Source of the DNA: Theobroma cacao
Taxonomy: Eukaryota; Streptophyta; Magnoliopsida; Malvales; Malvaceae
DNA: 64,000 bases
Direction of reading: 5' to 3'
NCBI RefSeq assembly: GCF_000208745.1
Contig: NC_030858.1
Coordinates: 21,198,661-21,262,660 of the forward strand
In this document: positions 18,174-62,600 of the stretch, in pieces
Layout of the letters: each line of letters opens with the position of its first letter
Numbering within the stretch: the stretch's first letter is position 1
The notes under the pieces: generated by a model
The model's database searches: none
What the model saw: the letters and a program-made list of their open reading frames with translations, nothing else
Told to the model about the DNA's origin: nothing
Translations under genes and position numbers: made by a program

Positions 18174-18429
18174 TGTCAACCCCAGCTCTACAACATGTTT
18201 ATTATGTCATTCCTACATAAGAATGCATATTTTCTTACTTGGGTACCTTGGAAATCGTTAAAGAATGACAATGTACCAAATAGTACAACTAAGTTGATTT
18301 AACCCTCGAACTAGTCCAAATAGAGATTTTAAGATGAAATTGAGAATTTTAAAACCCCAAAATGACTTAAAATGGTGATTCGGAGTTGGAGGACCGATTT
18401 GGAGTCAAATTGAAATTTTCATGACCTAG

Positions 18430-18600
18430 GGGCAAAATGATCATTTTGCCACTCGAGGTTAAAATTGGAATGTTGGAAGAAGTTTTTGACCAATATTGAC
18501 TATTTTGAACATAATTTGAGTTTGAGAAGTGAAAAATTTTAATTCCGGCATTTTTCTGAGCATAAAGGCAAAATAGTCATTTTGACACCTCAACGGCAAA
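18430..18600. repeat. GGCAAAAT...ATTTTGCC dyads in the LARD LTR
   Basis: Three or four repeats of an inverted pair (GGCAAAATGATCATTTTGCC in the best copy) lie upstream of the TATA box. Equivalents are at 28190-28375 in the 3' LTR, at 25310-25490 in the reversed solo LTR and, more diverged, at 59890-60210 in LARD3. Confidence 0.75.
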
Positions 18601-18773
18601 ATTGTAATTTTACACCACCCAACACTTGTCCAACACATGGATTTTAAGCAATATTATCATGGATAATTGAGGAAATTTAAGTGGTGGAGAGAGATTGCTT
18701 AATGGGTAAGTATGACACTTGGATTAATGGAATGGTGACATGTGTCAAATTTTCATCCATTTATTATTTTCCT

Positions 18774-27931: not shown

Positions 27932-30908
27932 TGCTATCAAGCCCAGCTCTACAATATGTTTATTATGTCATTCCTACATAAGAATGCATGTTTGCTTACT
28001 TGGGTACCTTGAAAATCGTTAAAGGACGACAATGTACCAAATGGTACAACTAAGTTGATTTAAGCCTCGAACTAGTCCAAATAAAGATTTTAAGATGAAA
28101 TTGAGAATTTTAAAATCCCAAAATGACTTAAAATGTTGATTCGGAGTTCGAGGACCGATTTGGAGTCAAATTGGAATTTTAATGACCTAGGGGCAAAATG
28201 GTCATTTTGCCACGCGAGGTTAAAATTGGAATGTTGGAAGAAGTTTTTGATCAAGATTGACTATTTAGAACATAATTTCAGTTTGAGAAGTGAAAAATTT
28301 TAATTTCGACATTTTTTCTAGCATAAGGGTAAAATAGTCATTTTGCCACACCAAGGGCAAAATTGTAATTTTACACCACCCAACACTTGTCCAGCACATG
28401 GATTTTACCCAATATTATCATGGATAATTGAGAAAATTTAAGTGGTGGAGAGAGATTGCTTAATGGGTAAGTATGACACATGGACCAATGGAATAGTGAC
28501 ATGTGTTAAATTTTCATCCATTTATTAGTTTCCTTATAAATCAGCACAAAATCAGCCCATTTCTCATTCTTATGGCCGGCCATAGCAAGAGCAAAGGAAG
28601 AAAAGAAGAACAAAAACCCTAGAGTGAAAATTCAAGAGAAAATTGGTGGATTTCAAGTAATCAAGCCATCAAAGGTGAAATTTCTTAACTCTAGCTTGTG
28701 ATCTATCTTTCCCATGCATTATTTTGCATTTTTCATGGTTGAATCACAAGATATCATGAAGGATAGTGTGCTGATCAAACCTTAGGAGAGAGAATTTGAT
28801 GATTTAAGATATATGGATATTTTTAGTTGTTTACGGTGTTAAGTGTAAGAATTAATTCACATATTCCTCATGAGTTCATCATTGGCCAAATCTTCCTTGT
28901 AGAGTGTTGATGGTGGATTTGATTTTATTTCAAGTGAATTGGTTAGGAAATGATGAATTATGGTGAGAAAATCAAGTAGGAAAAATCATAGTGTTGATGC
29001 ACTCACCATGGCCGAATTTTCCAAGAGAAAATGTGAGGATGATTTTGCCATATTTTAAGTTATTTAACTTGTGTTTGATGGTTTGAAGAATTGGAAGAAA
29101 AATGGAATTATTGGAGTTGAATTGGACATATTGGCCAATTAATCGAGTGATAGATCGAATAAGGCCAATACCGTTTTATTTAGGTAGACAATTGAATTTG
29201 TGTAGAACACCATGTTTAGACGATAATCCGAACAATTTACATCCCATTTCATGCATTAGTATAAAGCCTGAATTGGTTTTATAACCATTTAGCACAAATG
29301 TAGTAAATGGCTTATTGTGCATTATGTCTAGGTGGTAAGCATTCTGGCAAAAGTAAAGAGATAGTACCCGAGGATCGAGAATCAGACTACTCGAAACTCG
29401 ATTTCCATTACTGTGAGTAACCTTATCATCATCTTGATTATCTAAAGTGAATTTTAATTCGTTTTTGTGATTTTATGGAAAATGAGTTTAAATGGTAAAT
29501 CTTTATGTTTTATAAGCAAAATGTGATTAAATGAAATAATTTTGTAAAATTGTCTTGAAATTGAAAGATGGTTTTGAAAATGGAGTAATTGGAAACTAAT
29601 CGTTGTGTTATAAATCATGGTTTGAATTGAATGGCTTATGATAATATTGGCATGAATGGTTGGATTTGGTAAATGTGCTGAAAAAGTATGAACTGTTGAT
29701 TTGCCTTGAGAGGCTGTTAAATGAAATAATTGCAATGCCATGCTGGTGAATTTTATTGAATTGGTTGGTTATAATTGGTCGCTGCAGTGGACGGGTTCCG
29801 TGGACCAGCCTATTAGAGAGGCACGGTAACCCTATTATATTCTTACGTCAGTATGAGAGGTGCGGATGGATAACTCCTTAGGTTAACACTTTAGAGTTCA
29901 CTTCACGCTAAACCACCATGTGAGGGTGAACTCAGCCAACGCCAAGGAACGGCTATGTGTTCAAAGTAAAAAACATGATTTATGCGTACCTGACTTTTTA
30001 ATAGCCTTGGCAAACTCAGTTGGGATAGCCCTCGATGAAGGTATCTCTGATAATTGAGTATGAAAATGATTTTGGCACAAGCAAAACTTTTCAGGAAATA
30101 ATAAGCCTCGTTGTTTATTTTGGTGAAATGAATCTATTTTACCTTATTAAAATGAGTTCGAAATGATGTGAATCATTTTTATGCTAATCTATTTTATCAG
30201 TCTCCATTTACTCAGCTTTAGATATTTTAGATAGTATTTGTTTACTCACTGGGATTATATAATCTCACCACCCTCATTTCCACCCATTTCAGGCTCAGGA
30301 TAGTCAGTAGATAGCTCACTTAGTTGAGGGCTACAGTTGGACTTGCATCCTCAAAAACTGTAGGTTTACCGTTTTTGATACTTTTGGTCGTTCGTGGGCT
30401 CACGTGTCACTATAAATTAAATCTTATGCTTTGGTTATCTGTATTATAGTATGTATGAATTTATTTAGCTTTTATGCTACAAAAATTATTTATCGGTAAC
30501 TCTATAAATATTATTTTATAAAAAAATAGAATATTTTATTGAATATTTTTATTATATTCAAATAGTTATAGTTTCACTTTAAATGAATGTTTTAGATATC
30601 TAAACTTATTTTTTGTTATGAAATATTTGTTTTCCACTTGCATACTACATTTTTAGCTGGTTTCGAGATTTTTGAGGAAAAATGACCAAAATGCCCTTGT
30701 GAGAAAAAAAATTATTATTCTATTGTTTAGATTTGGAAATAGTTTATAATCTCTCAAAACATGATATTAAATAACTGTTGCTCACACAGGAGGTGAGAAA
30801 ACTGATATTAAAGCCTTGCGAGGTTTCGATTGACATTATGGGTAATGAATGTTTATCGGAACATCGCAACAGTTGTCACGGGCTCGATGAGAGTACAGGG
30901 TCGTGACA
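27932..30908 (+). repeat. LARD1 3' LTR
   Basis: TGCTATCAAGCCC...GTCGTGACA. Collinear with the 5' LTR with scattered substitutions and small deletions, for example at about 28800. Its 5' TGTCA has decayed to TGCTA. Confidence 0.9.
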
Positions 30909-44088: not shown

Positions 44089-47000
44089 TGTCATAGCCTA
44101 AACCCAATAGCCATGATCGATGCAAAGGTATCGATTGGAGTGATCTTAACTTATGCAAGCCTAAGATGAACGAATAAAACAATTAATTGGATTAACCTCA
44201 TGGGACTCATCACCATAGAACCATACATCAAACATGAATGAACATATTATATTACATAGGAATATATCATAGTAACCTGCACGTTCACATGCTCAAAATG
44301 CGAAAGCAACACATATCAAAATAACAAGTATGAGCCATTCTGTGGCAAATACAAATTAGCCATTTCTTGGCATTTCTCAAATACATGTAATTTAATATAA
44401 GACATAAACATAGTCATATCCATAACAGTCAAATATAAATGACCAAAACAAATAGGACCAGCAAAGTACAAGTCAAAACAAAAAGGCTAATGCCTGTTGG
44501 ATGCCTTACTGAACACATAACAATGTTGACTATGAAAGTAGCTCTTTCCAACAGACAGTAAACTTAAGCAACTACTGATCTGCAAAACCAATGCATCTTA
44601 CATGTAACAGTTATAGAAAACTCTATAAGCAGCTATGGGGAGGGGAACAAGCTAAACGGGAGAATGTTTGTCAAATAAACTTTTAAAATAAATGCAAGTA
44701 ATCCATTTCAAACAATATCAAAGTTTGCCTTTCAACCGTAACAAATATTCAAAGGATTTGGGAATTCAATTCCTAAACAATTTCAACCATCCCAAGGTGC
44801 AAGTTATGTGCCAAGTAGGATCACGTGTAAAAAAAAATTCAATACCATTGTCTTGACGAATAAAAACTCATTTAAAAAAGATTTTATAAGGTTTTATTGA
44901 AAACCCATTCTTAAGCCTTTGAAATAAGAATAATGGTTAACGTTCAAGTATTTCCAAGAAAAAAAATTTAAAATATTAGGCTCTAAAGCTTTTGTAAAAG
45001 ATGTTGAGGGAAACAAAGGTTTAGTTTTAAAGAAAATGAAATAATGTTGTTATCTTCAAAAAATCCTTGGAGAAAACAAATGGATTTCAAAAATAACATA
45101 ATTTTTATTACATTGAATAAAGATCAAGGTTGACACAAATACCAAATCGAAATGCCAAAATGAAAACAAATAGCAACTCAAGCACCATGGTAAAAATAAT
45201 TGCCAAATTCAAGGACCAAAGTCTAAACAAATACCAAAATCAAACAATATCAATTCCAAAGTCCAAAGTCAAAACAAACATTGAATCCTAATTCCATAGA
45301 GTCAAATACCATTACAAATAGATTGTGGAACACTAGATAGCATAGACAATCAAATCAAAGCGTGTCGTAGCACCAAAGTGGTCAGATACATGATAATCAT
45401 AGACCGTATATAAAATAAGGTAGGATCGTATTGACTACCAAACAAAACCAAATCAAAGGGATAAGACTCTGTCAACTAAACATTGTGCACAATGGCTAGT
45501 GGCTATTACCACTAGTTACAAGTCCATAACTCAAGTACACTCCACTAAAGCATTTTATTTATATATACAAATATTCAAATATTCATCCTCAAACGAAAAG
45601 GTGAATCCATTTACCATCCAAGATCAAAGGATTTGAAACAAAACAAAGTCATGTATCCGAGGTCCATTTCCAAGCAAAAGATTCAATCACTAATCAAAGG
45701 AGTGAGAAACAAAACTAAGTCAAGTCATCAATTATCCAAATGACCATAGACAAATGTCAATTTTGAGGCATCAAACATTTGTAAGGCTTATTCCCCATGC
45801 TCAAAATGAAATACATAATAACATATTTACATAGTATACATTGATTTCATAAAACAAACTTGAAACCATCATTCATTATCAAAATACGTTTTAATGCAAG
45901 GTTATAGAATAAGCATGCTTAATTAGATTAAAATAATAAAAATGTTGTTTCTACCCACCTTTTGAAGCATGTTTTTTCCTCTTGGCACCTTTTGTTGAAA
46001 GCTCGACTTCTTCAACAAACTCAAATTACTCCTATAACACTTAAAAATAAGGTTTAATCATCAATATTCTCAAAAATCCATAATTATTTTAGAATACTTT
46101 AAATATATGTTTCCAACTCTATTTAATCTTCACTTATTCTCAATAATTTCCATAAATCCTTCATCCAAGCCTCATACCCAATAAATAAACCACTTATCTT
46201 ACTTATTTTTCCTTCTTAGTGAGCTTCTGGTGGAGGGATCTAGCCAAATCTTGAAAACCTAAAAAAATTTAGATTTTAAAAAGAGAATAAAAATCATTAA
46301 AACCAAGTTTTGGGAGTCAAAACCCTTACCTTTAGAACTTAGAATCCAAGATTTGATGATGAAGTATGAAGGTCCTAAAAGATGTGAAATTTGAGAGAAA
46401 ATAGGTGGAAAAACAAAGAGATATGAGAAAAATGAGTGAGTCTCGAGTTTTAGGGTGTTTAAGCCTGTTTAAAGCTATCTAGGTAGTTTAGGGTTAACTA
46501 TGGCAAGTCTAGGGTTGATCTCATACTAGAATGTTTACATTTCCTTTCATTTTCCTTCATAGGATCGACTATAGAAGGTCTATAGTCAACCTTGGACCAG
46601 AATGCATGACTTACCTTGCTTTTACTTCACATGGTCGACCCTTTATGCACTAAGGTTGACTTCTTAGGTCCAAATTTGCAAAAATTGTTCTTTTTAAGGC
46701 CTAATTACATTCTAAATCCTTTCCACAACCTCCATAACCTTTTGTGAATTCTGAAGGATGAAATTAAGGTGCTTTGGCTAGTATTTGCATTTCCTAAGCT
46801 CATCAAGTTAATTGTCTAATTTATCCAAGCAATGGTGACTACAAATTTCACACAATCATATTAGGCCTAAGTCCATAATTATCCACATACATTCATCAAT
46901 ATGAATAAAAGTTAAAGACGTGTGTCATTCAAATTATTAATCATATGAGGTATTTGAGATTAGCAATTTTAAATATTTGAATTTTGCCAATTTCAAATTT

Positions 47001-47541
47001 TTAGGTAACCAATTAATTCTATAAATAAAACTTTTTCCATATATGGAAAGTATCACTAATCAAAATTTGTAACATTATCCACTCCTAATCTTATTAAGAT
47101 TAGAACTAAAATATTATAAATTAAAACTATTTTAATTTATTCTTCCCAAACATTTTGGTAACCTCTTACTAATCCATTTTAAATTAAAGATTATATGTCT
47201 TAATTACCTAATCTCATTAGGTAATTTAAATCTAACATTTAAGATGAAAGTCCTTAATTCATTTTCATGTGTCAAATTCAAATTTCACTCCTTAAATGAA
47301 GGAAATTAATTCATGATAATAGTCTTGCTCATAATTTTAAACTTCCATAATTCTTAGGAATCAAATTCCTTGATTTATGAATGTGTTCAAATAAATTTTG
47401 ACATTCTTAATTTAAGGAATCAAATTCCTTAATTTAAATATGTCAAATTTATCTTTCATGGAACCATTTCCATTAAATATTAGTTACTCAATTAGTGCTC
47501 TTGATTGCACCAATTTAGGCTTCAAATATGGACATTTAAAA
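44089..47541 (-). repeat. Gypsy complex LTR3 (interrupted by MULE2)
   Basis: Starts TGTCATAGCC right after the primer site. It is much diverged from LTR1 and LTR2. Instead of ATGTATCGATACAT it has GATCGACTATAGAAGGTCTATAGTCAACC-type inverted words (about 46500-46650). Its far end lies beyond MULE2 and the window. No coding sequence in 3.4 kb. Confidence 0.55.
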
Positions 47542-47886
47542 GAGGAAATTGTGAGAAAATGACCTCGTGATAAGGTGATTTCAGAAATAACCACCCATAT
47601 AAAGTTATCTGTTTCTAGCCAAAAATAAGCATGAGTAGTAAAAACATCGTTTCAAATAAATGCTCAGTTGTTTGGGCTATCTGCCTCCCGCTAGAGAGAA
47701 AATAGAAAAAAATAAAAATAAATGCGCGTAACTATTTGGGCTGGGTCATCTTTCTCTCTCAACTCTCTGAACTGTCTCAACTCTAGCAAGACTTTGTTGA
47801 GCACCATCGTTGTTAGCTCTTTCTCTCAGATCTCTTGACTGTATGAGCTTTGTCAACTTTCTGTTGTGCACCATCGTGATCGGGCT

Positions 47887-50800
47887 ATGGTCTATCTCTC
47901 GGCATCTGGCCACATTGTCGTAGATTCAGACCCTATAGTAGAGATCACATCAAGGTACCTATTATTGGGTTTATTTCTGCAACACACTTAAATTACTGAA
48001 ACATTTGATGTAAATTAGAAGATGGATTAGAAACATTGCCCAAAGTTGTTACACGCCATGCATCTATAACACGTGTTAGAGTTATTTTAGCGTGTCACGG
48101 CTGTTCCTGGCATGTTGTGGGTTAACTAGTTTTTTGGGTTGTTAGCGTGTCACGGCTGTTCCTGGCGTGTCGTGGGTTAACTGAATTTATGGGTTTTTGG
48201 TGTGTCACGGTTGTTCCGGCGTGTCGTGGGTTAACTGGTTTTTTGGGTTTTTAACGTGTCACAACTGTTGGTATAACGAGTCAGTAATTACAGTGATTGG
48301 CGTGACACGACAGTGATGCATGGCGTGTCACGATAGTGATGCATGGCGTGTCACGACATTTGACTTGATATGCATGGCGTGTTACAACATTTTACTTTAT
48401 ATGCATGGCGTGTAACAACACGACTGACAAATTTTTTATCACAATATGTATTGTGTAAAATGATTGACAATTTGTTTTTTTCAAAATTTCAGTGGGGTTC
48501 CAATTGTGCGACTTGTGATAAGACATGATGGTTGGTGGGTGGATGGCATTTTCAAGGGTGGTGAGTCATGAATGCGGGGGGTTAGGAGTGATTTGTCATT
48601 TGTGGGCTTGATGAAGCTGGTTGAATATGTTGTTGGGGTAAACTCAGAAATTGACGAGATTAAGTTACATGCATTGATCGGTACACCCAGAGAGCTATCA
48701 CGACTAATTATCAAGGACGATGAGGATGTTGCATTAATTTTGCTAGAACAGAGGAATGTTCCGACTGTGTATGTCAGCATTAAGGGACTTCAAACAAATG
48801 TTATGTCACATGAAAAAGTTGGACAACATGGTAATCAGCTCAATCAAAATGAGATTTACAATGCTTCACATATACCACAGCATTCAGTCTGTAACCCACA
48901 GCAATGGCAATTGAGGTATGCAAAAGAGTTTGTGCAGCCTAGTAGACAGATGACATTCACAGAACAGTTGGCTGCACAATTCTGACCAGGATGTGCATCA
49001 AACCAATTTCTTGCTTCTGTCCAACAAATGCAACGATCGGGTGACACTATAGAGTGTGTAATGCCATTGCCAAATGAGAATACGACACTTGAGGACAACA
49101 ATGTGAGGTTGGAGGGTGACATTGCGACGCTGGAGGATAATACTGCATTTGATAAGGGAAATGAGGATTTGTTTGCTACTAGTGAAGATAGATTTGATGA
49201 CACTTCAAATGATGGGCTTGAACAATCGCAAGATGACAGTTTAGACGATGACTGGCTTTATGACAGTGACATTCCAATTTACAATAATGTTGAAGGCGAA
49301 ACGGAACCTGTTGGAAGTGTTAATGTAGGAGATGTTCAGTGTGATGACCCCATATACAATAACCCCATCGCTGGTGAGAATGGGATTCGTTCCCTTGATA
49401 CATTGCTCGATGATAGTGATTAGGAAAGGGGAAATGCAGGGATATCTCATATGTGGGTAATTGCAGGTGTAGAAAGGTTCTCCTTCCAAACAATTACCAC
49501 TGAGGAGTCGACATGTGTCGAAGATCGCTTATACAAAGCAAGAATGTTTTCGTCAAAGGTCGAGTTAAAACGAGCTTTGAACATGTTGTTTATAAAAGAG
49601 AAGTTTGCGATAAGAGTAAAAAGGTCATGTAAAGCTCGTTAGAAGGTTTGTTGCAAGGACAAGGCATGCAAGTTCAGTGTTCGTGCAACGAAGTTACCTG
49701 ATAGAAGAGAATATTGGCAAGTTCGGACATTCCACAAAGTACACACCTGCACCGTTGATGGTTTGCAAGGGCGATTTCCAACTACGAGTGCGAAGATGAT
49801 TGGTGAACTTATGTCACACAAGCTTTGGGCTAATGGAGTAGCATTGAAACCTAAGGACATAATTTGTGAGATGAGGGTTCAGTGGGGATTGGAATGCTTG
49901 TATGGTAAAGCTTGGCAAGCGAAGAAGTATGCGAAGAGGCTTGTTTTCGGTCCACCAGAGGAGTCATTTCAAGTACTACCATCGTATTTTTATATGTTGG
50001 AACAAGAAAATCCTAGCATAGTGAGTGCAGTGGCTACTGATGAGGAAGAGAGATTCAAATATTAATTCTAGTCATACGGGGCTTGTATTTGGGGGTTTAG
50101 GAATGTAATGCGTCCTACGATTGCAATTGATGTGACACATCTGAAAGGCAGGTCCAAAGGTGTTCTGTTTGTCGCTGTATGCAAAGATACGAATGAGTGT
50201 GTATATCTAGTTGCGTTTCGCATCGGCCATGTTGAGGACGAAGTCTCGTGGATGTGGTTTCTTAGCACGCTGCGTGATGCGGTTGATTGTCCTAAAAACA
50301 CTATGTTCATTTCTGATCAGCATCTCGGCATTAAGAAAGCAATCCAAAATGCATACCCAGAAGCGCACCATGGTTTATGCGGTTACCACTTGAAAAAAAA
50401 CTTTAAAAACAAGTTCAAGCGCGATGATGTTTGTATGCTTGTCACCCTTGCTCGAGATTGCTATAATGTGGTTGATTTCAATAAACATATGAACCAAATA
50501 CAACAGATTCACTCAGGAGTCCACGCGGATCTTATGAGAATAGGGCCTGAGAAATAGGCACGTGCATGTTCACCGGCAAGGCGATTCCAAATGATGACAT
50601 ACAACATTGTGGAATGTGTTAACTCATGCTTGAAGCATGCAAGACAAATACTGATCACTGTTTTGATCGAGTTCTTTAGAGACATGTTCCAGCATTGGTT
50701 TCATGAACGGTACGAGGAAACTGTCAAGGTGACCATGCCCCTCAACCTTTGGGTTGCCAGGCAGTTGAGCAAAAGGTTCAATGATGCACATCACTTTCTA

Positions 50801-51486
50801 GTTAAGCCTATCAATCGAGTGGAGTTTGAAGTTAAAGACGGAAAGATGGACGGACTTGTAAACTTGTCTAGGAAGACGTGTTCCTGTTGTAAGTTCCAAA
50901 CAGATTTACTGTCATGTAGCCATGCCATTGTAGCAATAAGTTCATAATATCTTTATTTCTTATTTGAACCATAATTGACATAGCATTTACATTGTGCTTG
51001 AAGATTGAGTTTATTGTGTTTTTCAGTAAATGTAATCGTGAAGCCATTGAATTCTGCGCTAACTATTACAAGATAACTATTTTGGTGGAGGGTTATTCAG
51101 GATCCATTAGGCCGGTAGGGCATCCTAGTGAGTGGGACATCCCCCCTCATGTGAAACAAATTGTCATCTTGCCTTCACCTTGGCGAAGCCAAGCAAGAAG
51201 ACCTAGAAGGATAAGGATTCCATCAGTTGGTGAAGGCAGTCGAGCACAAAGATGTTCGCAATGCAAGAGGTATGAGCATAATAGACAGGACTGCCCATCC
51301 CCATTTGTAGTTCCATCCATAAATTCAGCACCATCTCTAAGTCAATCGGTGCCTCCATGACTGCGCCAAACCGAAGCATGTTCAAGTTGCAGACAAATCG
51401 GTCACACACGTAACAATTGTTCAATACGAAGGACGATGTCTGAAAATGTAAGGTGTGTTGTGGATGAAGATAGCTTGTCCGCCTAA
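47887..51486 (+). pseudogene. mudrA: MULE2 mudrA-type transposase gene, broken by stops
   Basis: Exon 1 (47887-47954) encodes MVYLSASGHIVVDSDPIVEI plus TS. An intron full of repeats follows, then exon 2 from 48493, which rejoins in frame (GVPIVRLVIRHDGWWVDGIF). Exon 2 runs in a single frame to about 50939, interrupted by stops at 48569, 48983, 49421, 49640, 50063, 50069 and 50555. Visible domains are an acidic N-terminal third, the MULE catalytic domain with Asp (IAIDVTHLKG), Asp (FISDQHLGIKKAI) and Glu (NIVECVNSCLKH), the CGYHLKKNF motif, and a SWIM zinc finger (CSCCKFQTDLLSCSH). Exon 3 (from about 51027) adds two CCHC knuckles (CSQCKRYEHNRQDC; CSSCRQIGHTRNNC) separated by TGA 51358. The transposase would cut and move the element. 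No frameshift is needed. Confidence 0.85.
48050..48430. repeat. Tandem repeats in mudrA intron 1
   Basis: GCGTGTCACGGCTGTTCCTGG / GTGGGTTAACTGG-TTTTTTGGG units are followed by ATGCATGGCGTGTCACGACA units. Nearly the same as 8285-8676 in MULE1's other gene, in the same direction relative to the plus strand. Confidence 0.8.
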
Positions 51487-51490
51487 CTAA

Positions 51491-51823
51491 ATGTGTTTGA
51501 AAATTGTAGTTGATTTCGTTTTGCTTTACGGATTTGTCTGCTCGATCATTCTATGAGCCACTTTTAGTTACGAACTTTGTTGCCAAACATTTCAAGCAGA
51601 TAAGCCTGTCAAGGCCTCTGTCTAATCAAGATCATGTTAAAGTACATTGTTACATTGTTTGTAAGAATGTTTCCGATTATAATCTCCATCAGACAAGAGC
51701 CTTGATAGGCTTATCTGCCTGAAATGTTTGGCAACAAAGTTCATAACTAAAAGTGGCTCATAGAATGACCGAGCAGACAAATCCGTAAAGCAAAACGAAA
51801 TCAACTACAATTTTCAGACACAT
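51491..51823. repeat. Inverted repeat with 133-bp arms and 67-bp loop
   Basis: Arms 51491-51623 and 51691-51823 pair over their full length. I count eight differences, all transitions. It starts 5 bp after the last possible mudrA stop (51486), so read-through mudrA RNA would fold into this hairpin. I do not recognise a protein in the arms. A 70-residue open frame across it is incidental. Confidence 0.9.
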
Positions 51824-52180
51824 TAAGTACAAATGGCTACATAAATCTTATAAGGGAACAACAAGCATGGAATGGCTACCAATATTAAGATATAAAGTCC
51901 CTATATTGTTACCCCATTTGTCACATTTTGTTACCACTTGTATCAAATAATTAATGATTTGATTTAATTCCTTTCTATTTCATTTGATAAACCGTTTATG
52001 TTCTTACTGCAAGTATTGTGGTGACATGTTGAGTGCATGCAGACTTTGCATCTCATGCAGACTAACCTGATATTTTAATTTGGGGGTTTCTAGCTCTCAT
52101 ATGCTTATCCATACTCAATATTAAAACCCACTGTAAGTGGTGGTAGCTGCATTACATCACAAAGACTCTCGAAAAGATAT
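51824..52180. other. Spacer between the two inverted repeats
   Basis: Mostly AT-rich with no gene. From about 52110 to 52180 it is plus-sense DUF1985 exon-2 sequence (ACTGTAAGTGG-GCTGCATTACATCA), an outward continuation of the left palindrome arm. Confidence 0.6.
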
Positions 52181-52453
52181 GGGAGTACAATGCAGTGAAG
52201 CCTAAGTGCTTCGAGATGCTCTTGGATGTCTATCCACAAGCTTTGTCTATCAAACTTTGACCTTGCTTGCACGGTTGAGTTGATTGTAGCCCGGTACAGT
52301 TTTCCTAGTACCCCAAGGGAATCATACATGGGTTTGTCAACCCTCTGCATGAAGTTTGGAAACTCCCTTGGTTTCAGGGATCGAGCCATCTCAGCTGGTG
52401 CTGCTATCTTTGCAAAATCAACAGCCATATAGTGAAGAGTTGCCAATTCTAGG
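52181..52453 (-). pseudogene. RDR gene fragment, left palindrome arm (minus), with DUF1985 piece
   Basis: The minus strand of 52453-52245 reads ELATLHYMAVDFAKIAAPAE, then LKPREFPNFMQRVDKPMY, then LGVLGKLYRATINST. This is the conserved segment just after the catalytic DLDGD region in plant RNA-dependent RNA polymerases (typically AVDF/Y-K-G..AE...KP.E.PDFM...GKLYR). It covers about 70 of more than 1,100 residues and lacks the catalytic Asp residues, so it has no enzyme activity. At 52245 it joins plus-sense DUF1985 exon-2 sequence (LLDVYPQ). The RDR subclass is undecided, with RDR2-like wording most likely. Confidence 0.7.
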
Positions 52454-52478
52454 TCCATGATTTGAGGTCTCGATCCAG

Positions 52479-52750
52479 CCTAGAATTGGCAACTCTTCAC
52501 TCTATGGCTGTTGATTTTGCAAATACAGCAACACTAGTTGAGATGTCTCTATCCCTGAAACCAAGGGAGTTTCCAGACTTCATGCAGAGGGTTGACAAAC
52601 CCATGTATGCTTCCCTTGGGGTACTAGGAAAATTGTACTGGGCTACAATCAACTCAACCATGCAAGCAAGGTCAAAGTTTGATATACCAAGCTTGTGCAT
52701 TGAACTCAAGGAGCATCCCAAAAACGTACGCTTCACTGCATGAACTCCCC
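52479..52750 (+). pseudogene. RDR gene fragment, right palindrome arm (plus), with DUF1985 piece
   Basis: Plus-strand copy of the same fragment: ELATLHSMAVDFANTATLVE, then LKPREFPDFMQRVDKPMYAS, then LGVLGKLYWATINST, ending near 52690 in antisense DUF1985 sequence. About 13 differences in 205 bp from the left arm by eye. The loop between arms is 25 bp (52454-52478). From about 52750 to 52880 it continues as a copy of the DUF1985 exon-2 start and upstream intron (compare 57960-58080), so the whole unit derives from a second, rearranged copy of the MULE's own gene that had picked up RDR sequence. Confidence 0.7.
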
Positions 52751-52884
52751 CGTCTCTTGGAGAGGCAAAATGTCAAGATCCTCATACTGTATGCGTTGGA
52801 TCTGCAAAACATGGCACAGATGCACTAGTGAGTTAAGCCATCATGTGCAACAAGGTATGCAAAAGATATAAATAAGGAACAAAT

Positions 52885-53485
52885 GTGAGACACGCCATGC
52901 AAAACAAGTAAAATGTTGTGACACGTCGTGCATATCAAGTAAAATATTCTGACATGCCATGCATAACAAGTAAATTGTTCTGACATGCCATGCATAACAA
53001 GTTAGACGTTGTGACACGCCATGTATAACAATTAAATTGTTCTGACCCGCCATGAATAACAAGTAAATTGTTCTGACACGCCATGCATAACAAGTTAAAC
53101 GTTGTAACACGCCATGCATAACAATTAAATTGTTCTGACCTGCCATGCATAACAAGTAAATTGTTCTAACACACCATGCATAACAAGTTAAACGTTGTGA
53201 CATGCCATGCATAACAATTAAATTTATAGGTCTTGGAGATTTATGGCGTGATACGGCACGGCCCAATTGTTCTGACACGCTGAGTGGAAGCAGATTTATG
53301 GGCTGACACGCTAAGTGGAAGCAAATTTATTGACTGACACGCTGAGTGATAGTGGATTTACGACGTCACACGCTGACTTCTTGCAGATTTATGGGGTCAC
53401 ACGCTAAGTGCAAACAGATGTATGTGGGGAGACGCTGAGTGGTATCATATTTATGGCATCACACGTTGACTTCTTACGACTGTGT
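52885..53485. repeat. 31-bp minisatellite and degenerate TGACACGCTAAGTGG repeats
   Basis: Ten or so units of TGACACGCCATGCATAACAA + GTAAATTGTTC (31 bp) end near 53220. They are followed to 53485 by longer units built on GATTTATGG-CTGACACGCTAAGTGGAAGC. They flank the 3' side of the Ulp1 gene. Open frames here are repeat artefacts. Confidence 0.85.
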
Positions 53486-53772
53486 ATCAAATTAAATATA
53501 TTGTATATAGAAAAGGAAAAATATTCTTGGTATCAAATTAATTGTGTATAGGCAAAAAAATTAATTGTGTATAAAATAATTGTATAAAGTATATTGTGTA
53601 TACCAAAAGAATTAATTATGTTTACAATGAATTGTATAAAATAAATTGTGTATACAAAAAATTTGTGTATAAAATTAATTGTATAAAAAAATTCTGTATA
53701 CAAAAAAATTGTACAGACAAGGGCTGATATGTTCAGGGTTCACTCTCACAACTGTTGAAAAAAATTTCTAGA
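53486..53772. other. AT-rich spacer, no gene
   Basis: Simple sequence dominated by AATTGTGTATAAAAT-like units. Nothing else is visible. Confidence 0.6.
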
Positions 53773-54284
53773 GCATATTGTCGACGCATTTTTGTAATCA
53801 TATTCTACTTAATTCCAATCTTTTCTGATTGCAAAATATGGTCCATGTACCCTATCATGAACATACCACAGTTGACACTATCATCCTGCCTATACACTTT
53901 AGCTTTTGGCAAATGAATATCCAATGGCATCGACATCAAATCCCTTCTCTTCTGATGTATGTTGTTGAAATAATCAGCTTGGTGGCAGATGAATGGCATC
54001 ATTGTCATCAAGGGTGTCATCTGACCCGCACAAACTCCGTTATCCTAAGCATCCGAAGTTCTTGCTGAGTCCACCACCTTGATCGTCTACCTCACCAAGT
54101 CGATCTTCACAACCACCCAATGCCCACCAACGTTGCAATGAGCAAGGATGAAATCCACATCTTCCCATTTTTTGGGGTATGTTGGCCTTTCACCCTCCAC
54201 ATACCCCCGCAACTCATCTGGAATCTGCATTGTGGCTTGGGCATCTTTTGTTGGAAATTCGGTGTGTAGCATACAGATGGTGTC
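53773..54284 (-). other. Ulp1 (C48) catalytic exon of the MULE2 gene
   Basis: Acceptor TTTCACAG at 54285-54292 precedes DTICMLHTEF. The order is His (about 54145), Asp (about 54085), then Cys (about 53858). A single TAG after LVR (about 54087) breaks it where family members often have Trp. The triad residues have not changed even though the gene is dead. Confidence 0.75.
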
Positions 54285-55244
54285 CTGTGAAACATGTAAA
54301 CATTAGCTTACACTTCATGCAAACAAAAACTTAGTATTTAAAATTGAACAATTTTCAAATAAACTAACGAAGAATATCGTGTCAACCACGCATGCAAGGG
54401 GTAGTGTACAACTTCTACTTTGGCCCTGTCATTCACTTGCAGAGCAGGCTAAGGCATACGTCGATATGTTCACTTGTCATTTCCTCATTGGGATCCTCTA
54501 AGGTTATGAAAAAGTCAACCCCTTGATCCCCTAAGATGTCGATGTTACGCCTTCATATGTAACATAATGAATTTCATAAGACTTGGTGGATTAATGTTTC
54601 ATTAAAAAACAATATTTGCAATGTTATTTACAAGCTTACCTTGTAGACTCGTCTTTCTTGAAAGCTTCGTAGTCTTCTACGATTTTATCCCTCACATCTC
54701 GACGGGTCACTAAGGGGTCGACGAATGGGTTTACCATGTATTTGCTCGCCATTTTTAGCCGTGCCCGCTCAATTGGGTCTGAAATTTCTACTGCACCATG
54801 ATGGACAACAGATGACTCTAGTGATGACGATCGTATCTCAACTGCATTTGGAGTGCTCCCATGATAAAGAACGATAGTTCCTACTGCTACGTCGATGAAT
54901 GCATCGATCGGAGGAAGACGCTCTCCTTCAGCCACAATTGAGTCAAACTTCCCATCCCCTCCAACAGATGCATCAATAATGGACTCAGGCAAAGAAACAT
55001 GCTCTCCTTCAACATCATCTGATTGAAAGGTGACATCCACAGCCATAGCTTCATCGACAACGTCATTGACATGAGTTACGTGCTTTCCGTCAGCACCAAG
55101 AATGTCATCGTCAATGTCAACACCAGGTTCATGATGATGTCTATCATCAGCATCATCATGCTCTAGACCAGCACTGTGAGATGGACCACCCTACAAAATT
55201 GGAAAAACCGTTAGTTAGCTCATAAAATACCACAAACCATAAAC

Positions 55245-55580
55245 AGTAAAATGTTGTGACACGCCATGCATATCAAGTAAAATGTTGTCACACGCCATGC
55301 AAAACAAGTAAAATGTTGTGACACATCATGCATAACAAGATAAACTTTGTGACATGCCATGCATAACAAGTAAAATGTTGTGACACGCCATGCATAACAA
55401 GTTAAACGTTATGACACACCATCCATAACAAGCAAATTGTTATGACACACCAAGGATAACAAGCAAAATGTTCTGACACACCATGCATATCAAATCAAAC
55501 GTTGTGACACGCCATGAATAACAAGTAAAATGTTGTGACATGCCATGCATATCAAGTCAAATGTTGTCACACGCTAAGGC
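55245..55580. repeat. 31-bp minisatellite inside an intron of the Ulp1 gene
   Basis: About ten units of TGACACGCCATGCATAACAA + GTAAAATGTTG lie within the intron between exons 55751-55930 and 54640-55190. Confidence 0.9.
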
Positions 55581-56006
55581 TGACACGACAATAACTAACT
55601 ATAATACAAATGTCTTGACCCGCTAATGACCAAAAACCAGTTCCACCACTACCACTTAACCCCAAAAACCATCAAACCAGCAAGAAAACACAGTCTAAAC
55701 AGTTGCTAAACGTAAACCATCAAAACACAAGTGAAGATAGAATAACGTACTTGTGATTTAAGGCTGTCAAGAATCCAACCATTGATACGGTCCTCAAGCA
55801 TCTGCATTGCTAGACTCAATGACTGAATTGAAGCCTTCAACTCCAACATCTCTTTTTCATGCTTGCGCATGATCCGTCAAAGTTGATGGGTAGTGACTGC
55901 TTTGTCATTGACTATTCTCTACTGGGTCAACTGCAATAACATATACAACTGTGTTATTCAATAATCATATATGAAATTGTTGAACATTAACCGTTACAAC
56001 TTTAAT

Positions 56007-56560
56007 ATCCTAACTGGTGCTCGATAATAGTCTACGGTGGAGCCGGACCGATCGATGCATGAGGACCTATCGTCGCTTTCGCAAACTGCAATTACATATA
56101 TAATTGTGTTATTTAATAATCATGTATGGAACTGTTGAACATTAACCTTTACAACTTTAATATTCTTACTGTCGACTCGTTAGCTATCTGTGGTTGAGCC
56201 GGACAGATCGATGCTTAAGGACCTATCGTCGCTTCCGCAAACTGCAATTACATATATAACTGTGTTATTCAATAATCATGTATGGAATTGTTGAACATTA
56301 ACTATTACAACTTTAATATCCTTACCGCCGGCTTGTTAGCTGTCTACGATTGAGCCGAACCGATTGGTGCTTGAGGACCTGTCGTCGCTTTCGTAAACTG
56401 CAATTATAAAAATTACTGTGTTACTCGATAAACATATATGGGAATGTAGAACACAAATCGTTAGAACTGATCTTACTGACGGGTCATTTTTACTCTGCAT
56501 CTGAGGAAGACCGATGGGTGGTTTTGGAGGTACCAGTGCATGGTCTAACTGTAAATACAA
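56007..56560 (-). repeat. Four tandem 72-bp mini-exons with their introns
   Basis: Exons 56477-56548, 56326-56397, 56170-56241 (72 bp each) and 56015-56085 (71 bp) recur every 151-156 bp, each with similar flanking introns. Peptides are variants of FTKATTGPQAPIGSAQ and FAEATIGP.ASICPAQPQIA. MULE1 has two such exons, also 151 bp apart (32002 and 32153). 72 bp equals 24 codons, so extra copies keep the frame. Confidence 0.85.
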
Positions 56561-58074
56561 AAATGTTATTCGATAATCACATATGGAATTGGAGAACACA
56601 AAATCGTTACAATTGTCCTTACCGGCTATTCACTGCCTTGACCATGGTCGTCCCCTTCGTCCATCAACTCAGGGCCCGACAGCTCATCAACTAAAGCAGC
56701 GGCGGTGCGCATCCACTTCGTGCCACCAGAGGCTATTTTCTCCTTCAAGCTTCTTCTTTTTTGCCTCGCACCTCAGCCCCAATTCGACTGATCCTCCATG
56801 TGCCCTATTGGCATGTACTCGTGGCCCTCCGATAACGGGACATCAAGGTCCACAAAATACTCCCAGAAGGCCTCATCTGCATGTGGGTTCCAACGTCTCC
56901 AGTGCGCACAACTGTAAATAAACAAATAAAATGTTGTCATTATCGAATATGGAAAATTATTATACAAATATAACGCAAAAATTAGCAACTGTTCACTCAC
57001 ATGGTCAGATGACTCTAACTTCTAAATTACCTTGTAAAAGTCTTTTGACTTCTGATTGCAATCCCATCTGCACATTCGTGGGTAGATGTTGTCCTTCGGA
57101 CCAAAGGGGGCAACTATTTTTCGAAGGGCCATAATTGCCTTCATTGCCTAGAATTGCATGTCAAATGTAACCATTTTTAGATCGTAAATCATAAACGAGT
57201 GCACCCATAAATTTTTTTTTCAAAAGGAAACTGAAAAATGTTACGTGATAATACCTGTATCACCCATGCGAATCCATAAATGTTGTAGCATAATCGAGTT
57301 TCCTTTGTCACGCTTGAGTCAAACACTTTGAACCCCTTCAAAAGGTAGTCTAAGGTTAACTTCCAAACATAGTGCCCCCATGGGAAGACATTCCAAGCGT
57401 TGATGTCTTCCACCAATGACAGCAACCAAGGCGTCACCCGTCTACGGTAGTCTTGACCAAATAAAATGTTATTCACGATCAAGACGAGTGCCATCTTAGT
57501 GACATCTCCTGGTTGCTGGAAGTTGCCCTTGCGAAACATATTAAGCAAAGCCTGCAGCTTAACACTCTCCTGTCCATTCCAGTATCTGTCATGAATTCCC
57601 TCCGCAGTAACCTCGTACGATCATTTGAACACATCGGGCATTGGACTAAACTTTAACCCGGTGATGAGGTAGAACTCCTACTTTGATAGTCGCGCCTTGC
57701 TCTTGCTAATGGCAAACCATAGCTCATGGTCCATTGACTAGTTCTCAATGATCTGGCGAATCATGATGCTATGCAAGAGATCAGCGCAAAAGTACCCCTG
57801 TGGATAGACGTCCAGGAGCATTCCGACGCAGGTACGCTTAACGGGATCGTACTCCCCCTTCTGCTGGAGAGTCTTTGTGATGTAATGCAGCTATGACCAC
57901 TTACAGTGAGTGTTAATTACGATGTTGAACGCCCACTTCTCCCTCAGCATGATCAGCAAACTATCAAGATCCTCATACTGTCTATGTTGGATCTGCAAAA
58001 CATGGCACACATGCACTAATGAGTTAAGCCGTCATGTGCAACAAGGTACACTGAGAACATAAATAAGGAATAAA

Positions 58075-58335
58075 TGTTGTGACACGCCAAGCATTACAAG
58101 TAAAATGTTGTGACACGCCAAGCATTACAAGCAAAATGTTGTGACACGCCATGCACAACAAGTAAAATGTTGTGACACGCCATGCATAACAAGTTAAACG
58201 TTGTGACATGCTATGCATATCAAGTAAAATGCTGTCACATGCCATGCATAACAAGTAAAATGCTGTCACACGCCATGCATATCAAGTAAAATGCTGTCAC
58301 ACGCCATGCATATCAAGTAAAATGCTGTCACACGT
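58075..58335. repeat. 31-bp minisatellite in intron 1 of the Ulp1 gene
   Basis: Eight or so units of GTGACACGCCATGCATAACA + AGTAAAATGTT between exon 1 (58549-58569) and exon 2 (57992). Confidence 0.9.
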
Positions 58336-58569
58336 CAATAACTAACTATAATAACAATGGCGTCACACAGTAAACACCCAAAACCCCTAAAACCACTACG
58401 GCTTAACCCGAACAACCATCAAACCAGCAAGAAAATACAATCTAAACATTTGCAAAACAAAACAAAAAACCCGAACATATCAAACAAACCCAAGAAAAAT
58501 CCAAAAGATTAACGAACACAAGAATGTTTTAATTTGAGACTCACTGACCTCTTCATTCATGGTCGACAT

Positions 58570-58804
58570 TTTTGCTGGTGCTGTGGTGTCGTTACACTTG
58601 CAAAGAGCCTTCTTGAACACTCATGTACCTGCGAGAATGAGAAATGAATCACACAGACATTACAAATTCTAAATAATCAGTATTTAAAATGAAAAATGCC
58701 CTTATAATATTCTTATTTATTCTGAAAAAAGAGAATTAATTCAGTGGAAGTCCAAACGATTACCATGTTAACTGCCCACTTTTTTTTTTCATTTCTCTAT
58801 TTAA
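58570..58804. promoter_or_regulatory. Upstream region of the Ulp1 gene
   Basis: The 235 bp before the exon-1 ATG, AT-rich, with no other gene. It must hold the promoter, but I see no certain TATA box. Confidence 0.35.
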
Positions 58805-59285
58805 AACCATGACGTGTCACCTACTCAAGCACAATCGTGTCACACACTCTAAACCATGACCATGGCGTGTCAGCTTTTCAAGCAATGTCGTGTCACACAC
58901 TCTAAATCATGACCATGGCGTGTCACTAACTCTGAACTCTGGAGTGTCACAGCTTCCCTCCATGGCATGTCACTAACTCTTCACTCTAACGTGTCACAGA
59001 TTCCTTCCATGGCGTCTCACGAACTCTAAACGTTGGCGTGTCACAGATTCCCTCCATGTCGTGTCACCAACTCTTAACTCTGGCGTGTCACAGATTCCCT
59101 CCATGGCGTCTCACCAACTCTGAACGCTACCATGTCACAGATTCCCACCATGGCTTGCCACTAATTCTTAACTCTAGCGTTTCACAAATTCCCTCCATGG
59201 TGTCTCACCAACTCTGAGCAGTGTCGTGTCACACATTCCCAACATGACGTTTCACAAACTCTAAACCCTGCCCTGCGACAACTGT
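58805..59285. repeat. Subterminal CATGGCGTGTCAC repeats of MULE2 (right side)
   Basis: Units of about 22-25 bp alternate CATGGCGTGTCACAGATTCC + CTC with GGCGTGTCACTAACTCTNAAC. Reverse complement of the 7095-7890 block of MULE1. Confidence 0.85.
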
Positions 59286-59634
59286 CTAACATATGGCCTA
59301 CTATAGCAAGACCGTTTTCTGCTTTGGATTCACATCTTTCTCCTTTCAATTCACCATCGTATCAAGGATTTCTGGTTTCACATCATTAGCCAAGCTTTCC
59401 ATTCATGATGATCGGTTCTTCATTCTATTTAATATCTCTCTTCTCCTATTATCTGAATGCCATGTCCCAAATCTCTGAAAACACATCTCATGCAACATTA
59501 TTTTGTTTTGCACAACCTTTGGAAAAAAAATGGATATTTTGCACAACCAATCCTTGCATATTTATTTTTTTTCTCCCATTTTTTGTCTGTTTGAGAGTGC
59601 ACGCTAATGAAGACGGCTCATTGAGGGCATTTTT
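59286..59634. repeat. MULE2 right end up to the LARD3 insertion
   Basis: Non-coding. The last 50 bp match the inner part of MULE1's left terminal repeat. The outermost roughly 110 bp of the MULE lie beyond LARD3, outside the window. Confidence 0.65.
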
Positions 59635-62600
59635 TGTCAAGCCTGACCTTATAAAATACTTGCCACGTCATTCATATGATTGATAATATGCTTGCATACT
59701 TGGAAAGCCCCGAAAGAAAAATCGTTAAAAGACGACAATGTACCAAATGGTACAATTAAGTTAATTTAAGCCTCGAACTAGATCAAATAGAGAATTTAAA
59801 ATGAAATTAAGAATATTAAAGTCCCAGAATGGTTTAATATGGTGATTTGGAGTTCGAGGATCAATTTGGAGTCAAACCGAAATTTTCACTATCTAGGGGC
59901 AAAATGGTCATTTGCCACCTGGGGACAAAATGAGAATTTTAGAAAAGATTTTTTTGGCCCCATTTGACTTATTGGAGTATAATTTGAGTGTTTGGCAGTG
60001 AAAAAGTTTAATTCCAGTGATTTCTAGAGTGTAGGGGCAAAATCGTAATTTTGCCACCCGCGAACAAAATTTGAGATTTTGAGAGAATTTAGATCAAATT
60101 TGACAAATTGGAGAATGGTATGAGTATAAGGGATGAAAAATATGTCTATGGGCAATTTTTCAGTTTTTGGGGTAAAAATGTAATTTTTGACTTTTACGGG
60201 GGCAAAAGTGTAAATTTCAAAAATTACTCCACCGAGACTTTGGATGAGTCTGAGAATTTTATCTAAGCTATGAATATATGAGACAAGTGTATGGTGAAAA
60301 TTTGGAAACAAATGGATGGCTAGAATTTAAGGAATTAATAAAACATTAAAAAAAGAATAAAATAATATTATATTATTTTAGCCTTTAAAAAGGTAAAAAT
60401 TCCAGAATTCTCATCTTCTTCAGCTGTCCAAACCAGGGGAGAAAAGGGGGAAAAAAACAAATAAGAACCCTACCTGAAAATTTGGGGAAAATCAAGAGAA
60501 ATCAAGAAATCAAGCATTGAAAAGGTAAATTTCATTGATTTTCCTTGTGATTTTCACTACCCATGCATTTTTTTCTCATTTCCATGCAAAATTAGAAAGT
60601 GGGTATGGACACCCATGCTGGCCAAACCTCCATGGATGAGTTTTGAGCTTGAGTTTTGGTTGATTTTAATTGAATTAAGTGATTTTAGTTAGGTTATATT
60701 GAAATATAGCAAAAATAAGCTAGAGAAATAATTTTCTCCCATTGAAACCCATTATGCCGAATTTTCTAGGGGAATATTGGTAGCTGATCTTGATGTTTAT
60801 TTGAGGAATTATGATGAATAATGATAAATTATGAGCCTAGAAAAATAATGGGAATTTTCGGAGCACAAATACGAATTTTTACCCACTAGGGGTACTTTCA
60901 TAATTTGCAGTCGGGACTAATAATTTGCACCACACTGAGAGACATTAAGTCAATTTGGGTGCAATTGAGGTATAGAAACTGAAAAAAAATAATTTGGAGT
61001 TTAAACGAACGCGTATATCGATTTATCGGGTAAAAGATCGAAATAGGCTAACATCGCGTTTACGCAAAATTTAGACATTTTTGCATTCCATATCATGCAT
61101 TAGTAGTCTAAATTAGTTTAATTTCAATTTAGTACCAATGTGGTGAATTTCTCGATTTTGTACTGTGTCAAGGTGGTGAGTCCTCCGATAAAGGTAAGGG
61201 AATTGCACCCGAGGACCAATAGTCTGAGTATTTCGAAAATCTCCACTCTAGACACTGTGAGTAACCTTACCATCATTTTAATTATCTAAAATATGTTTTT
61301 ATTCGGTTTTGGTGAATTTTATGAAAATGAATTCAAATGGTAAATTTTTTTGTTTTGTAAACAAAATGAGTTTAAATGAAAATATTTTATAAATTGTCTT
61401 GAAACGAAATAATGATTTTGAAAATAGAATAATTAGAGACCACTGATATGCTGTAAATTTAAAATTGAATTAATGGCTTATGTTATTGTATTGGCATGAC
61501 TAGTTGGGTTGTGTTTTTTATAAATTGTATGAATTGCTTTATTTTACCCTTGCAGGCTGGGTAGTAATATATTAGCCCTGTCATGCTGTCAAAATTTTGT
61601 TGTATGGTGAGTTTGACCTGCTGCAGTGGGTTGGGTTCTATGGACTAGCCTATTAGAGGGGCACGAAATCCTGTTATATTTTTACCTCGGTTGGAGAGGC
61701 GAGTAGGGTAACTCTCGAGGTATAACTTTTAGAGTTCACTTCACGCCAAACCACCACGTGAAGGGGAACTCGACCAACGCCAAGGAACAACTTCAAAATA
61801 AAAACAAGACTTTATAATAGCCTTGGCGGACTCAGTTGGGATAGCCCTCGGCCAAGGTATCCTAGTTAACTGAGTATGATAATAATTTTTGGTATGAGCC
61901 AAGCTTTTTAGGAAATTCATAAGCCATACTAATTACTTGCTTTAAATAAATTGATTTCATTTGGTTGAAGTAAGTTGAAAGATGATAAATTACAGTTTGA
62001 TGAAATGTTTTAATAGTCTCCTTTTACTCGACTTCAGATATTTTGAGTGATGTTTGTTTACTCACTGGGATTTTATAATCTCACCACCCTCATTTCCACC
62101 CATTTCAAGCTCATAATAGATTGTAGATAACTGATATTGGCGAGGATTACAGTTGAACTTGCCACATCCAAAAACTGTAGGTTCATTTCTTTTGATACTT
62201 TTAGTCATTCATGGGCCCACGTGTCATTGTAAATTAAATTCTATACTTTGGTTATCTGCATTATAGTATGTAGGAATTTATTTTTCTTTTACGCTCTAAA
62301 AATTATTTATGCAGTGTTCTTAGAATATTGTTTTATGTGAAAATTGAATATTTTATTTAATATTTTTATTTTATGCTAACAGTCATATTTCCATTTTAAA
62401 CGAATGTTTTAGACATCCAAAATTATTTTTGATTATGAAATATGCGTTTTCCACTTACATATTATATTTTTAACTGATTTGAGATTTTTGGGATAAATAA
62501 CCAAAATACCCTTATGAGACGAAAATTATTATTTTATTTGTTTAAGTTGGAAACAGTTTAAAATCTTTTAGAATGTGGTATTTGGCAACAGTTACCCACA

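What the first reader, a model, noticed from the sequence alone, without database searches (positions are those of the whole stretch)
52181..52750. A transposon-borne head-to-head duplication of an RNA-dependent RNA polymerase fragment
Seen: two arms of about 270 bp, a 25-bp loop and roughly 6% divergence. Each arm encodes the AVDF...KPREFPDFM...GVLGKLYR segment, which I recognise as the region after the catalytic site of plant RDR proteins, fused to the MULE's own DUF1985 exon. Known: MULEs capture host gene pieces, and inverted repeats such as Mu killer in maize give small RNAs that silence matching genes. Inference: transcripts from either side would fold into long double-stranded RNA matching a host RDR gene. 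A transposon could thereby lower a component of the silencing machinery, or the locus could simply be a source of siRNA against the MULE. The arms differ, so this is not a simple fold-back assembly error.
Basis: partly seen in the sequence, partly recalled or inferred. Interest (0 to 1): 0.87.

Follow-up and report, generated by a model that had tools for sequence, protein, structure and literature searches.

The report
Cacao transposon carrying RDR2 hairpins
A family of jumping genes in the cacao tree carries a mirror-image piece of RDR2, the plant's own gene for silencing jumping genes, in at least 21 places; RNA read from it should fold into double strands that match RDR2, though whether it really turns RDR2 down is untested.

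Summary
The palindrome is real and not an assembly fold-back. Window 52166-52764 has 202-nt inner arms, a 25-nt gap and outer parts of 83-85 nt. The inner arms match the last exon of the host's RDR2 gene (94% and 92%); the gap is another RDR2 piece (26 of 27 nt); the outer parts match the transposon's own DUF1985 exon. It lies in a 12.1-kb Mutator-like element (about 47541-59634) with a broken transposase, a DUF1985-Ulp1 (VANC/KIU-like) gene and 31-bp repeat arrays. The genome is Theobroma cacao.

Of 37 regions examined, 21 hold it complete with the same core boundaries, so one palindrome formed and was amplified. Each of 20 aligned copies holds 10-92 distinct 21-mers identical to the RDR2 locus. 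An annotated cacao protein (TCM_038703) reads the hairpin as the end of the DUF1985-Ulp1 gene.

Against a selected anti-silencing role: the RDR2 arms are not clearly better conserved than their flanks, copies bear methylation-type mutations, and many related elements lack the hairpin. No RNA data were available. Dedicated action against RDR2 (as miR820 acts on OsDRM2 in rice) stays open, not shown.

The parts
52166..52764 (.). the whole palindrome
   Evidence: self-match 604 columns, 86.1%; fold z -36
52251..52452 (-). left inner arm, 202 nt of the last exon of RDR2
   Evidence: 94% (190/202) to host RDR2, L035 5963-6164 = C3:488462-488663
52453..52478 (-). loop, a second RDR2 piece from the exon before, 205 bp upstream in the gene
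   Evidence: 26 of 27 nt identical to L035 5731-5757 (match runs 52452-52478)
52480..52681 (+). right inner arm, the same 202 nt of RDR2
   Evidence: 92% (186/202) to host RDR2
52115..52250 (+). left outer part and beyond: piece of the DUF1985-gene exon, sense on plus (palindrome from 52166)
   Evidence: 81% to 17899-18024 and 57917-57799
52682..52764 (-). right outer part: the same exon piece, sense on minus
   Evidence: 77% to 18024-17950 over 75 columns
52765..53222 (-). copy of intron 1 of the DUF1985 gene with 31-bp repeats, ending in a splice-acceptor-like sequence and the start of exon 2
   Evidence: 84% to 57956-58331 and repeat matches; splice site inferred
51486..51828 (.). second, unrelated palindrome
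   Evidence: 86.3% self-match, fold z -37; 40 listed genomic loci, each matched on both strands
49643..51360 (+). MULE transposase, broken by stops and a frame change
   Evidence: PF10551 6.4e-19 and SWIM 1.4e-4
53805..58569 (-). DUF1985-Ulp1 (VANC/KIU-like) gene, extent from exon matches; exon 1 inferred at 58569
   Evidence: PF09331 1.6e-10, PF02902 1.7e-14 read through stops
47541..59634 (.). the transposon, about 12.1 kb
   Evidence: collinear copies; left end seen in L045, L052/L062 and L053/L061, right end in L058 and in the window match 59640 to 6750

Best explanation
A VANC/KIU-type Mutator-like transposon of Theobroma cacao captured a piece of the host gene RDR2 next to a copy of its own DUF1985 exon. 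The fused piece was inverted and duplicated once, and the palindrome then spread with the element to at least 21 complete copies. It lies between two converging genes, beside a copied intron end, so read-through from either side would give a hairpin RNA with a stem of about 290 bp (inferred). Hairpin RNA can be diced without RDR2 (established knowledge, recalled); the siRNAs would act mainly on the element family in cis, and as a by-product could hit RDR2 mRNA, because many 21-24-nt stretches are identical. Shown: structure, donor, single origin, amplification, identity to RDR2, methylation-type decay. Inferred: transcription, dicing, action on the family. Not shown: any effect on RDR2.
For: 202-nt arms 94% and 92% identical to RDR2, loop 26 of 27. 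21 complete palindromes of 37 regions with the same core boundaries. All 20 aligned copies fold at -420 to -500 kcal/mol. 10-92 distinct 21-mers per copy identical to the RDR2 locus. T. cacao protein P0001 carries DUF1985, Ulp1-region, repeat, antisense and sense arm in order. C-to-T type changes at CG and CHG about 12 times the A/T-site rate. CHG excess in palindromes over non-palindromic neighbours, p 0.010 on all copies.
Against: No small RNA or transcript data. The CHG excess vanishes on the 10 copies that have every segment (0.180 v 0.157, p 0.39) and CHH shows none (p 0.44 and 0.09), so action in cis by hairpin siRNA is not established.
Confidence: 0.5

Rival explanations
1. Selected anti-silencing device: hairpin siRNAs lower RDR2 and so weaken RNA-directed DNA methylation, helping the element's VANC-like protein keep the family active, as miR820 in rice CACTA elements lowers OsDRM2.
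For: The donor is a component of the pathway that re-silences VANDAL elements: rdr2 mutation compromised re-silencing (PMC10398659, passage). Amplified with perfect 21-24-nt matches. Fewer shared non-deamination changes in the core than in flanks (18/404 v 18/220, p 0.07) with equal single-copy changes, and a lower shared-to-single ratio than in the outer parts (18:69 v 26:34, p 0.006). Matched changes in both arms exceed within-subfamily shuffles (44 v 36.0, 48 of 2000; 17 v 13.5 without deamination-type, 12 of 2000).
Against: Core no less diverse than flanks (9.3/9.4% v 8.6/9.1%); with more control sequence shared changes 8/404 v 29/821, p 0.16. Gene conversion between arms would also give matched changes. 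33 of 40 listed transposase matches and 17 of 40 second-palindrome loci have no listed RDR2 palindrome within 5 kb. Copies look long methylated.
Confidence: 0.15
2. Inert passenger: the palindrome was carried along, is methylated and untranscribed, and makes no siRNA of consequence.
For: Decay at the rate of the neighbouring sequence, methylation-type mutation, broken transposase, 16 of 37 regions with partial or lost palindromes.
Against: Palindrome at 21 loci, several unlike surroundings, and gene models that run through it; gene models are not expression data.
Confidence: 0.31
3. A Mu killer-like brake: the outer arms match the DUF1985 gene, so the hairpin silences the element's own VANC-like gene to the host's benefit.
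For: Outer arms match DUF1985-gene exons elsewhere at 77-81%.
Against: The outer parts are short and diverged (14.1% and 17.1% among copies), and the hairpin spread with the element it would silence.
Confidence: 0.03
4. Assembly fold-back artefact.
For: None found.
Against: Arms differ; 21 complete copies at different places; the same chimera in T. cacao proteins from contigs of other lengths.
Confidence: 0.01

Closest known systems
miR820 of rice CACTA transposons against OsDRM2 (PMC3459959; abstract and section 9 read)
   Same: Multicopy DNA transposon carrying a hairpin whose stem is homologous to a host gene of the DNA-methylation pathway
   Different: Here the target would be RDR2, the stem is about 290 bp and would give many siRNAs rather than one miRNA, the source is exon (miR820 stem resembles an OsDRM2 intron), and neither small RNA nor target effect nor co-evolution is shown
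Mu killer of maize (PMC3440606; abstract read)
   Same: Inverted duplication in a Mutator context proposed to give hairpin RNA by read-through
   Different: Mu killer duplicates the transposase gene and terminal repeat and is one locus; this duplicates a host gene piece plus a DUF1985 exon and is multicopy
VANC/KIU anti-silencing MULEs of Arabidopsis (PMC5735166 and PMC10398659 passages; PMC13317346 section 11)
   Same: MULE transposase, DUF1985 gene with Ulp1 domain, tandem repeats in introns and non-coding parts
   Different: No RDR2 hairpin was mentioned in what I read of them; anti-silencing activity of the cacao gene is untested
Pack-MULEs and other gene-capturing elements (PMC13317346 section 11)
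   Same: Host gene fragment carried and multiplied; possible siRNAs against element and donor
   Different: Here the fragment is inverted-duplicated, the donor is a silencing enzyme, and the element still has transposase sequence

Membership tests
VANDAL/KIU-type Mutator-like element | MULE transposase | tested here: met
   PF10551 6.4e-19; broken in this copy
VANDAL/KIU-type Mutator-like element | DUF1985 gene with Ulp1 domain | tested here: met
   PF09331 1.6e-10; PF02902 1.7e-14 on a frame read through stops
VANDAL/KIU-type Mutator-like element | tandem repeats in introns and non-coding parts | tested here: met
   31-bp arrays at 52793-53309, 55131-55678, 57985-58470, one in intron 1 (intron inferred)
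VANDAL/KIU-type Mutator-like element | degenerate terminal inverted repeats, target-site duplication | tested here: inconclusive
   Ends show no obvious long inverted repeat; no direct repeat of 7 nt or more at the ends of the one copy tested
VANDAL/KIU-type Mutator-like element | anti-silencing activity of the VANC-like protein | not testable with these tools
   needs expression in plants
miR820-type transposon small RNA against a silencing gene | hairpin inside a multicopy transposon, stem homologous to a silencing gene | tested here: met
miR820-type transposon small RNA against a silencing gene | small RNA accumulates and the target falls | not testable with these tools
   no RNA data held
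miR820-type transposon small RNA against a silencing gene | sequence kept or co-evolving with the target | tested here: inconclusive
   core v flanks p 0.07 and p 0.16; no outgroup DNA for RDR2
Mu killer-type inverted duplication | inverted duplication of the transposase gene and terminal repeat | tested here: not met
   arms are RDR2 and DUF1985-exon sequence
Pack-MULE | captured fragment in an element without transposase (definition recalled) | tested here: not met
   fragment present, but transposase sequence is present too, though broken

The most novel reading that the evidence does not exclude
A transposon family that attacks the host's silencing in two ways: a VANC/KIU-type anti-silencing protein and, at the 3' end of the same gene's transcript, a hairpin of the host's RDR2 whose RDR2-independent siRNAs lower RDR2 and weaken re-silencing. 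It would be a second, independent origin of the miR820 strategy, in another plant order, another transposon superfamily and against another component of the pathway.
Probability: 0.15. Interest if true: 0.92.

Novelty: new variant of a known kind. Interest (0 to 1): 0.66.

Why it matters
Among what I read, the case for transposons using small RNAs against the silencing machinery rests on miR820 and OsDRM2 (PMC3459959). Here another kind of element carries, in at least 21 complete copies, an inverted repeat of the polymerase that makes the siRNA precursors of that machinery. Cacao small-RNA and degradome data could test it directly. Even if inert, it is a natural series of palindromes of one origin for studying how hairpins arise, are lost and attract methylation. 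It also explains several short 'RNA-dependent RNA polymerase' gene models in cacao records, which look like transposon hairpins and not genes.

Tried and rejected
Assembly artefact: rejected. RDR1 or RDR6 as donor: rejected; the family search found several RdRP genes, but in the DNA search of the genome only the RDR2 gene among them matched. Protein-coding constraint on the arms: rejected; third codon positions vary least, not most. Known RNA family: nothing over a gathering score in 47000-60000. Origin of the second palindrome: six frames gave no Pfam match over its cut-off, and the 40 listed genomic loci each match on both strands, so no single-copy donor showed; left open. Escape of RDR2 from the hairpin: at residue 971 cacao has E where four of five other proteins compared have A and one has T, the arms' majority has A, and 5 of 7 differences between the arm majority and RDR2 are at third codon positions; this fits change in the host gene after capture, but no outgroup DNA was held to test for excess change. 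Higher non-CG deamination in palindromes: p 0.010 on all copies, p 0.39 on the 10 common copies; not relied on. Target-site duplication: not found. Small RNA data: none held.

Full report
What is there. Window 52166-52764 is an inverted repeat. On the plus strand, left to right: a piece of the DUF1985-gene exon (sense), the RDR2 fragment (antisense), a short loop, the RDR2 fragment (sense), the DUF1985-exon piece (antisense), then a copy of the 31-bp-repeat intron of the DUF1985 gene. As RNA the 631-nt stretch folds into one hairpin, z -36. A second palindrome of 343 bp lies about 340 bp to the left.

Donor. A region search of the protein collection put the T. cacao RDR2 protein second, 90% identical over 85% of the 79-residue query, after the chimera P0001. 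In the window's own genome (324.85 Mb, 431 contigs; the window is C9:21198661-21262660) RDR2 lies on C3; its exons were mapped with that protein, P0002, at 98.9-100% except one short exon at 88.5%. C3 is 36,364,294 bases long, the contig length listed for P0002, so the genome is T. cacao. Arms and gene are 94% and 92% identical over the same 202 nt of the last exon; the loop matches 26 of 27 nt of a stretch that ends 205 bp upstream. The sequence between, 44 codons and an intron, is missing. The arms cover residues 909-975, after the DLDGD motif at 830 (that this is the catalytic motif is recalled).

Element. The palindrome lies in an element of about 12.1 kb, 47541-59634. Five copies fetched at length (L045, L052-L055) match it in long pieces, four of them collinearly; the left end was seen in three copies and the right end in one, L058, besides a match inside the window. 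It has a MULE transposase broken by stops and a frame change and, on the other strand, a DUF1985-Ulp1 gene whose first exon I place at 58569 and whose first intron holds 31-bp repeats (exon and intron inferred from P0001 and splice-like sequence). VANC proteins have a DUF1985 domain (PMC5735166, passage), and Ulp1-bearing VANC genes are called KIU (PMC13317346, section 11). The T. cacao protein TCM_038703 (P0001, 805 aa) aligns in order with the window's DUF1985 exons, Ulp1 region, 31-bp repeat, antisense arm and sense arm; Pfam reports only DUF1985 and RdRP for it. It is a gene model, not proof of a transcript.

Copies. A DNA search with the palindrome gave 92 matches; the tool scored 40 of 79 first-look candidates, so counts are lower bounds. 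Besides the RDR2 gene I examined 37 regions: 21 hold both cores over their whole or nearly whole length (L010-L029 and L033) on C1, C3, C4, C5, C6, C7, C9, C10 and the small contigs C11 and C44; 16 are partial, rearranged or have lost the core (L050 and L051 show none). Core ends agree in the 21 within a few nt, and the gap between the cores is about 27 nt in nearly all and 21 in L027, so the palindrome arose once. Predicted proteins agree: of 11 hits of a 124-residue search 10 are named T. cacao and one is unnamed; 8 of the 11 read antisense arm into sense arm in one frame, 6 of them through a recognisable loop. The three protein searches (18, 11 and 16 hits, P0026 in two lists) named no such chimera in another species; many hits of the third are unnamed, and I read two of its 15 new sequences, both ordinary RDR2 pieces.

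Age and state. Twenty complete copies were aligned; the 21st, L033, was left out. Mean pairwise difference: left core 9.3%, right core 9.4%, flanks 8.6% and 9.1%, outer parts 14.1% and 17.1%, loop 18.9%. Left-left 9.3%, right-right 9.4%, left-right between copies 9.4%, left-right within copies 8.7% (2 of 10000 permutations as low): arms and copies radiated from one sequence at about the same time. The majority of the 40 arms differs from RDR2 at 7 of 202 sites, 5 at third codon positions. Changes among copies are mostly C-to-T or G-to-A: 17.5% per site per arm at CG and at CHG, 4.7% at CHH, against 1.4% for any change at A/T sites, the mark of long cytosine methylation. With A/T-site change of about 1-2% and a recalled plant rate near 1e-8 per site per year the copies are of the order of one to two million years old; this is rough.

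Could it hit RDR2? Each of the 20 copies holds 10 to 92 distinct 21-mers and 2 to 75 distinct 24-mers identical to the RDR2 locus (window copy 65 and 47). Over the copies 93 of the 182 possible 21-mers of the RDR2 segment are matched exactly by some arm, 164 with at most one mismatch. The sequence could target RDR2; whether small RNAs exist is unknown.

Is it selected? The core is not less diverse than the flanks. Non-deamination changes shared by two or more copies are fewer per site in the core (18 of 404) than in the flanks (18 of 220), p 0.07, while single-copy changes are alike (69 of 404 v 41 of 220, p 0.66); against the outer parts the shared-to-single ratio is lower (18:69 v 26:34, p 0.006). 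With more control sequence, on 10 copies, 8 of 404 v 29 of 821, p 0.16; there single-copy deamination-type changes were more frequent in the core (0.131 v 0.077 per site, p 0.003, not corrected for base composition). A/T-site change looked lower in the core (0.9-1.2%) than in the two flanks (2.0-2.4%), but palindromes as a whole do not differ from their neighbours (p 0.62 and 0.97). Matched changes in the two arms exceed within-subfamily shuffles slightly (44 v 36.0, 48 of 2000; 17 v 13.5 without deamination-type, 12 of 2000), which gene conversion between arms would also give. These are several looks at one alignment of related copies; none is decisive. Of 40 listed transposase matches (392 candidates, 40 scored) 33 have no listed RDR2 palindrome within 5 kb, 6 a complete and 1 a partial one; of 40 listed second-palindrome loci 17 have none, 13 a complete and 10 a partial one. 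Two relatives without it were read: in L065 and L066 sequence at or just after the second palindrome is followed directly by sequence from beyond the RDR2 palindrome. So the hairpin is dispensable and lines without it multiply.

Context in print. miR820 in rice CACTA elements lowers OsDRM2, and the two co-evolved (PMC3459959, abstract and section 9). Loss of RDR2 compromised re-silencing of a VANDAL element (PMC10398659, passage). Mu killer is a Mutator inverted duplication in maize (PMC3440606, abstract). No paper on an RDR2-derived transposon hairpin showed in searches, judged from their listings; the library holds open-licence papers only.

Verdict. The anti-silencing idea is possible and easy to test, but the evolutionary evidence does not clearly favour it. 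I hold it most likely that any siRNAs act chiefly on the element family, with RDR2 as a possible side target; an inert passenger is the main rival.

Noticed in passing
window 51486-51828: Second palindrome, 343 bp, arms 86% alike, 5-nt gap, just 3' of the transposase; 40 listed loci in the genome, each matched on both strands, found with and without the RDR2 palindrome. Source unknown.
   Followed up: partly
window 52793-53309, 55131-55678, 57985-58470, 48336-48420: 31-bp repeat arrays in the element's non-coding parts, reminiscent of VANC target arrays; no motif was tested.
   Followed up: no
P0026 (T. cacao 'NB-ARC - like 10'): A cacao gene model joins the RDR2 palindrome to an NB-ARC domain, so one copy lies beside or in an NLR-like gene.
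   Followed up: no
L045 (G000:C10:10226500-10236400): Two opposed partial element copies with RDR2 core pieces about 6 kb apart in opposite orientation, a larger inverted arrangement.
   Followed up: no
window 59632-60080, also 18171-18611, 25303-25743, 27937-28372: Another repeat family begins right at the element's right end and recurs in the window.
   Followed up: no
window 12442-14962, minus strand: Frames that look by eye like a Copia-type retrotransposon polyprotein; not searched.
   Followed up: no
L066 and other loci matching only 1-296 of the second palindrome: A widespread sublineage in which the second palindrome is cut short; in L066, the one read, it is joined straight to the 31-bp repeats. 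Loss of the RDR2 palindrome or the state before capture cannot be told apart for certain.
   Followed up: partly
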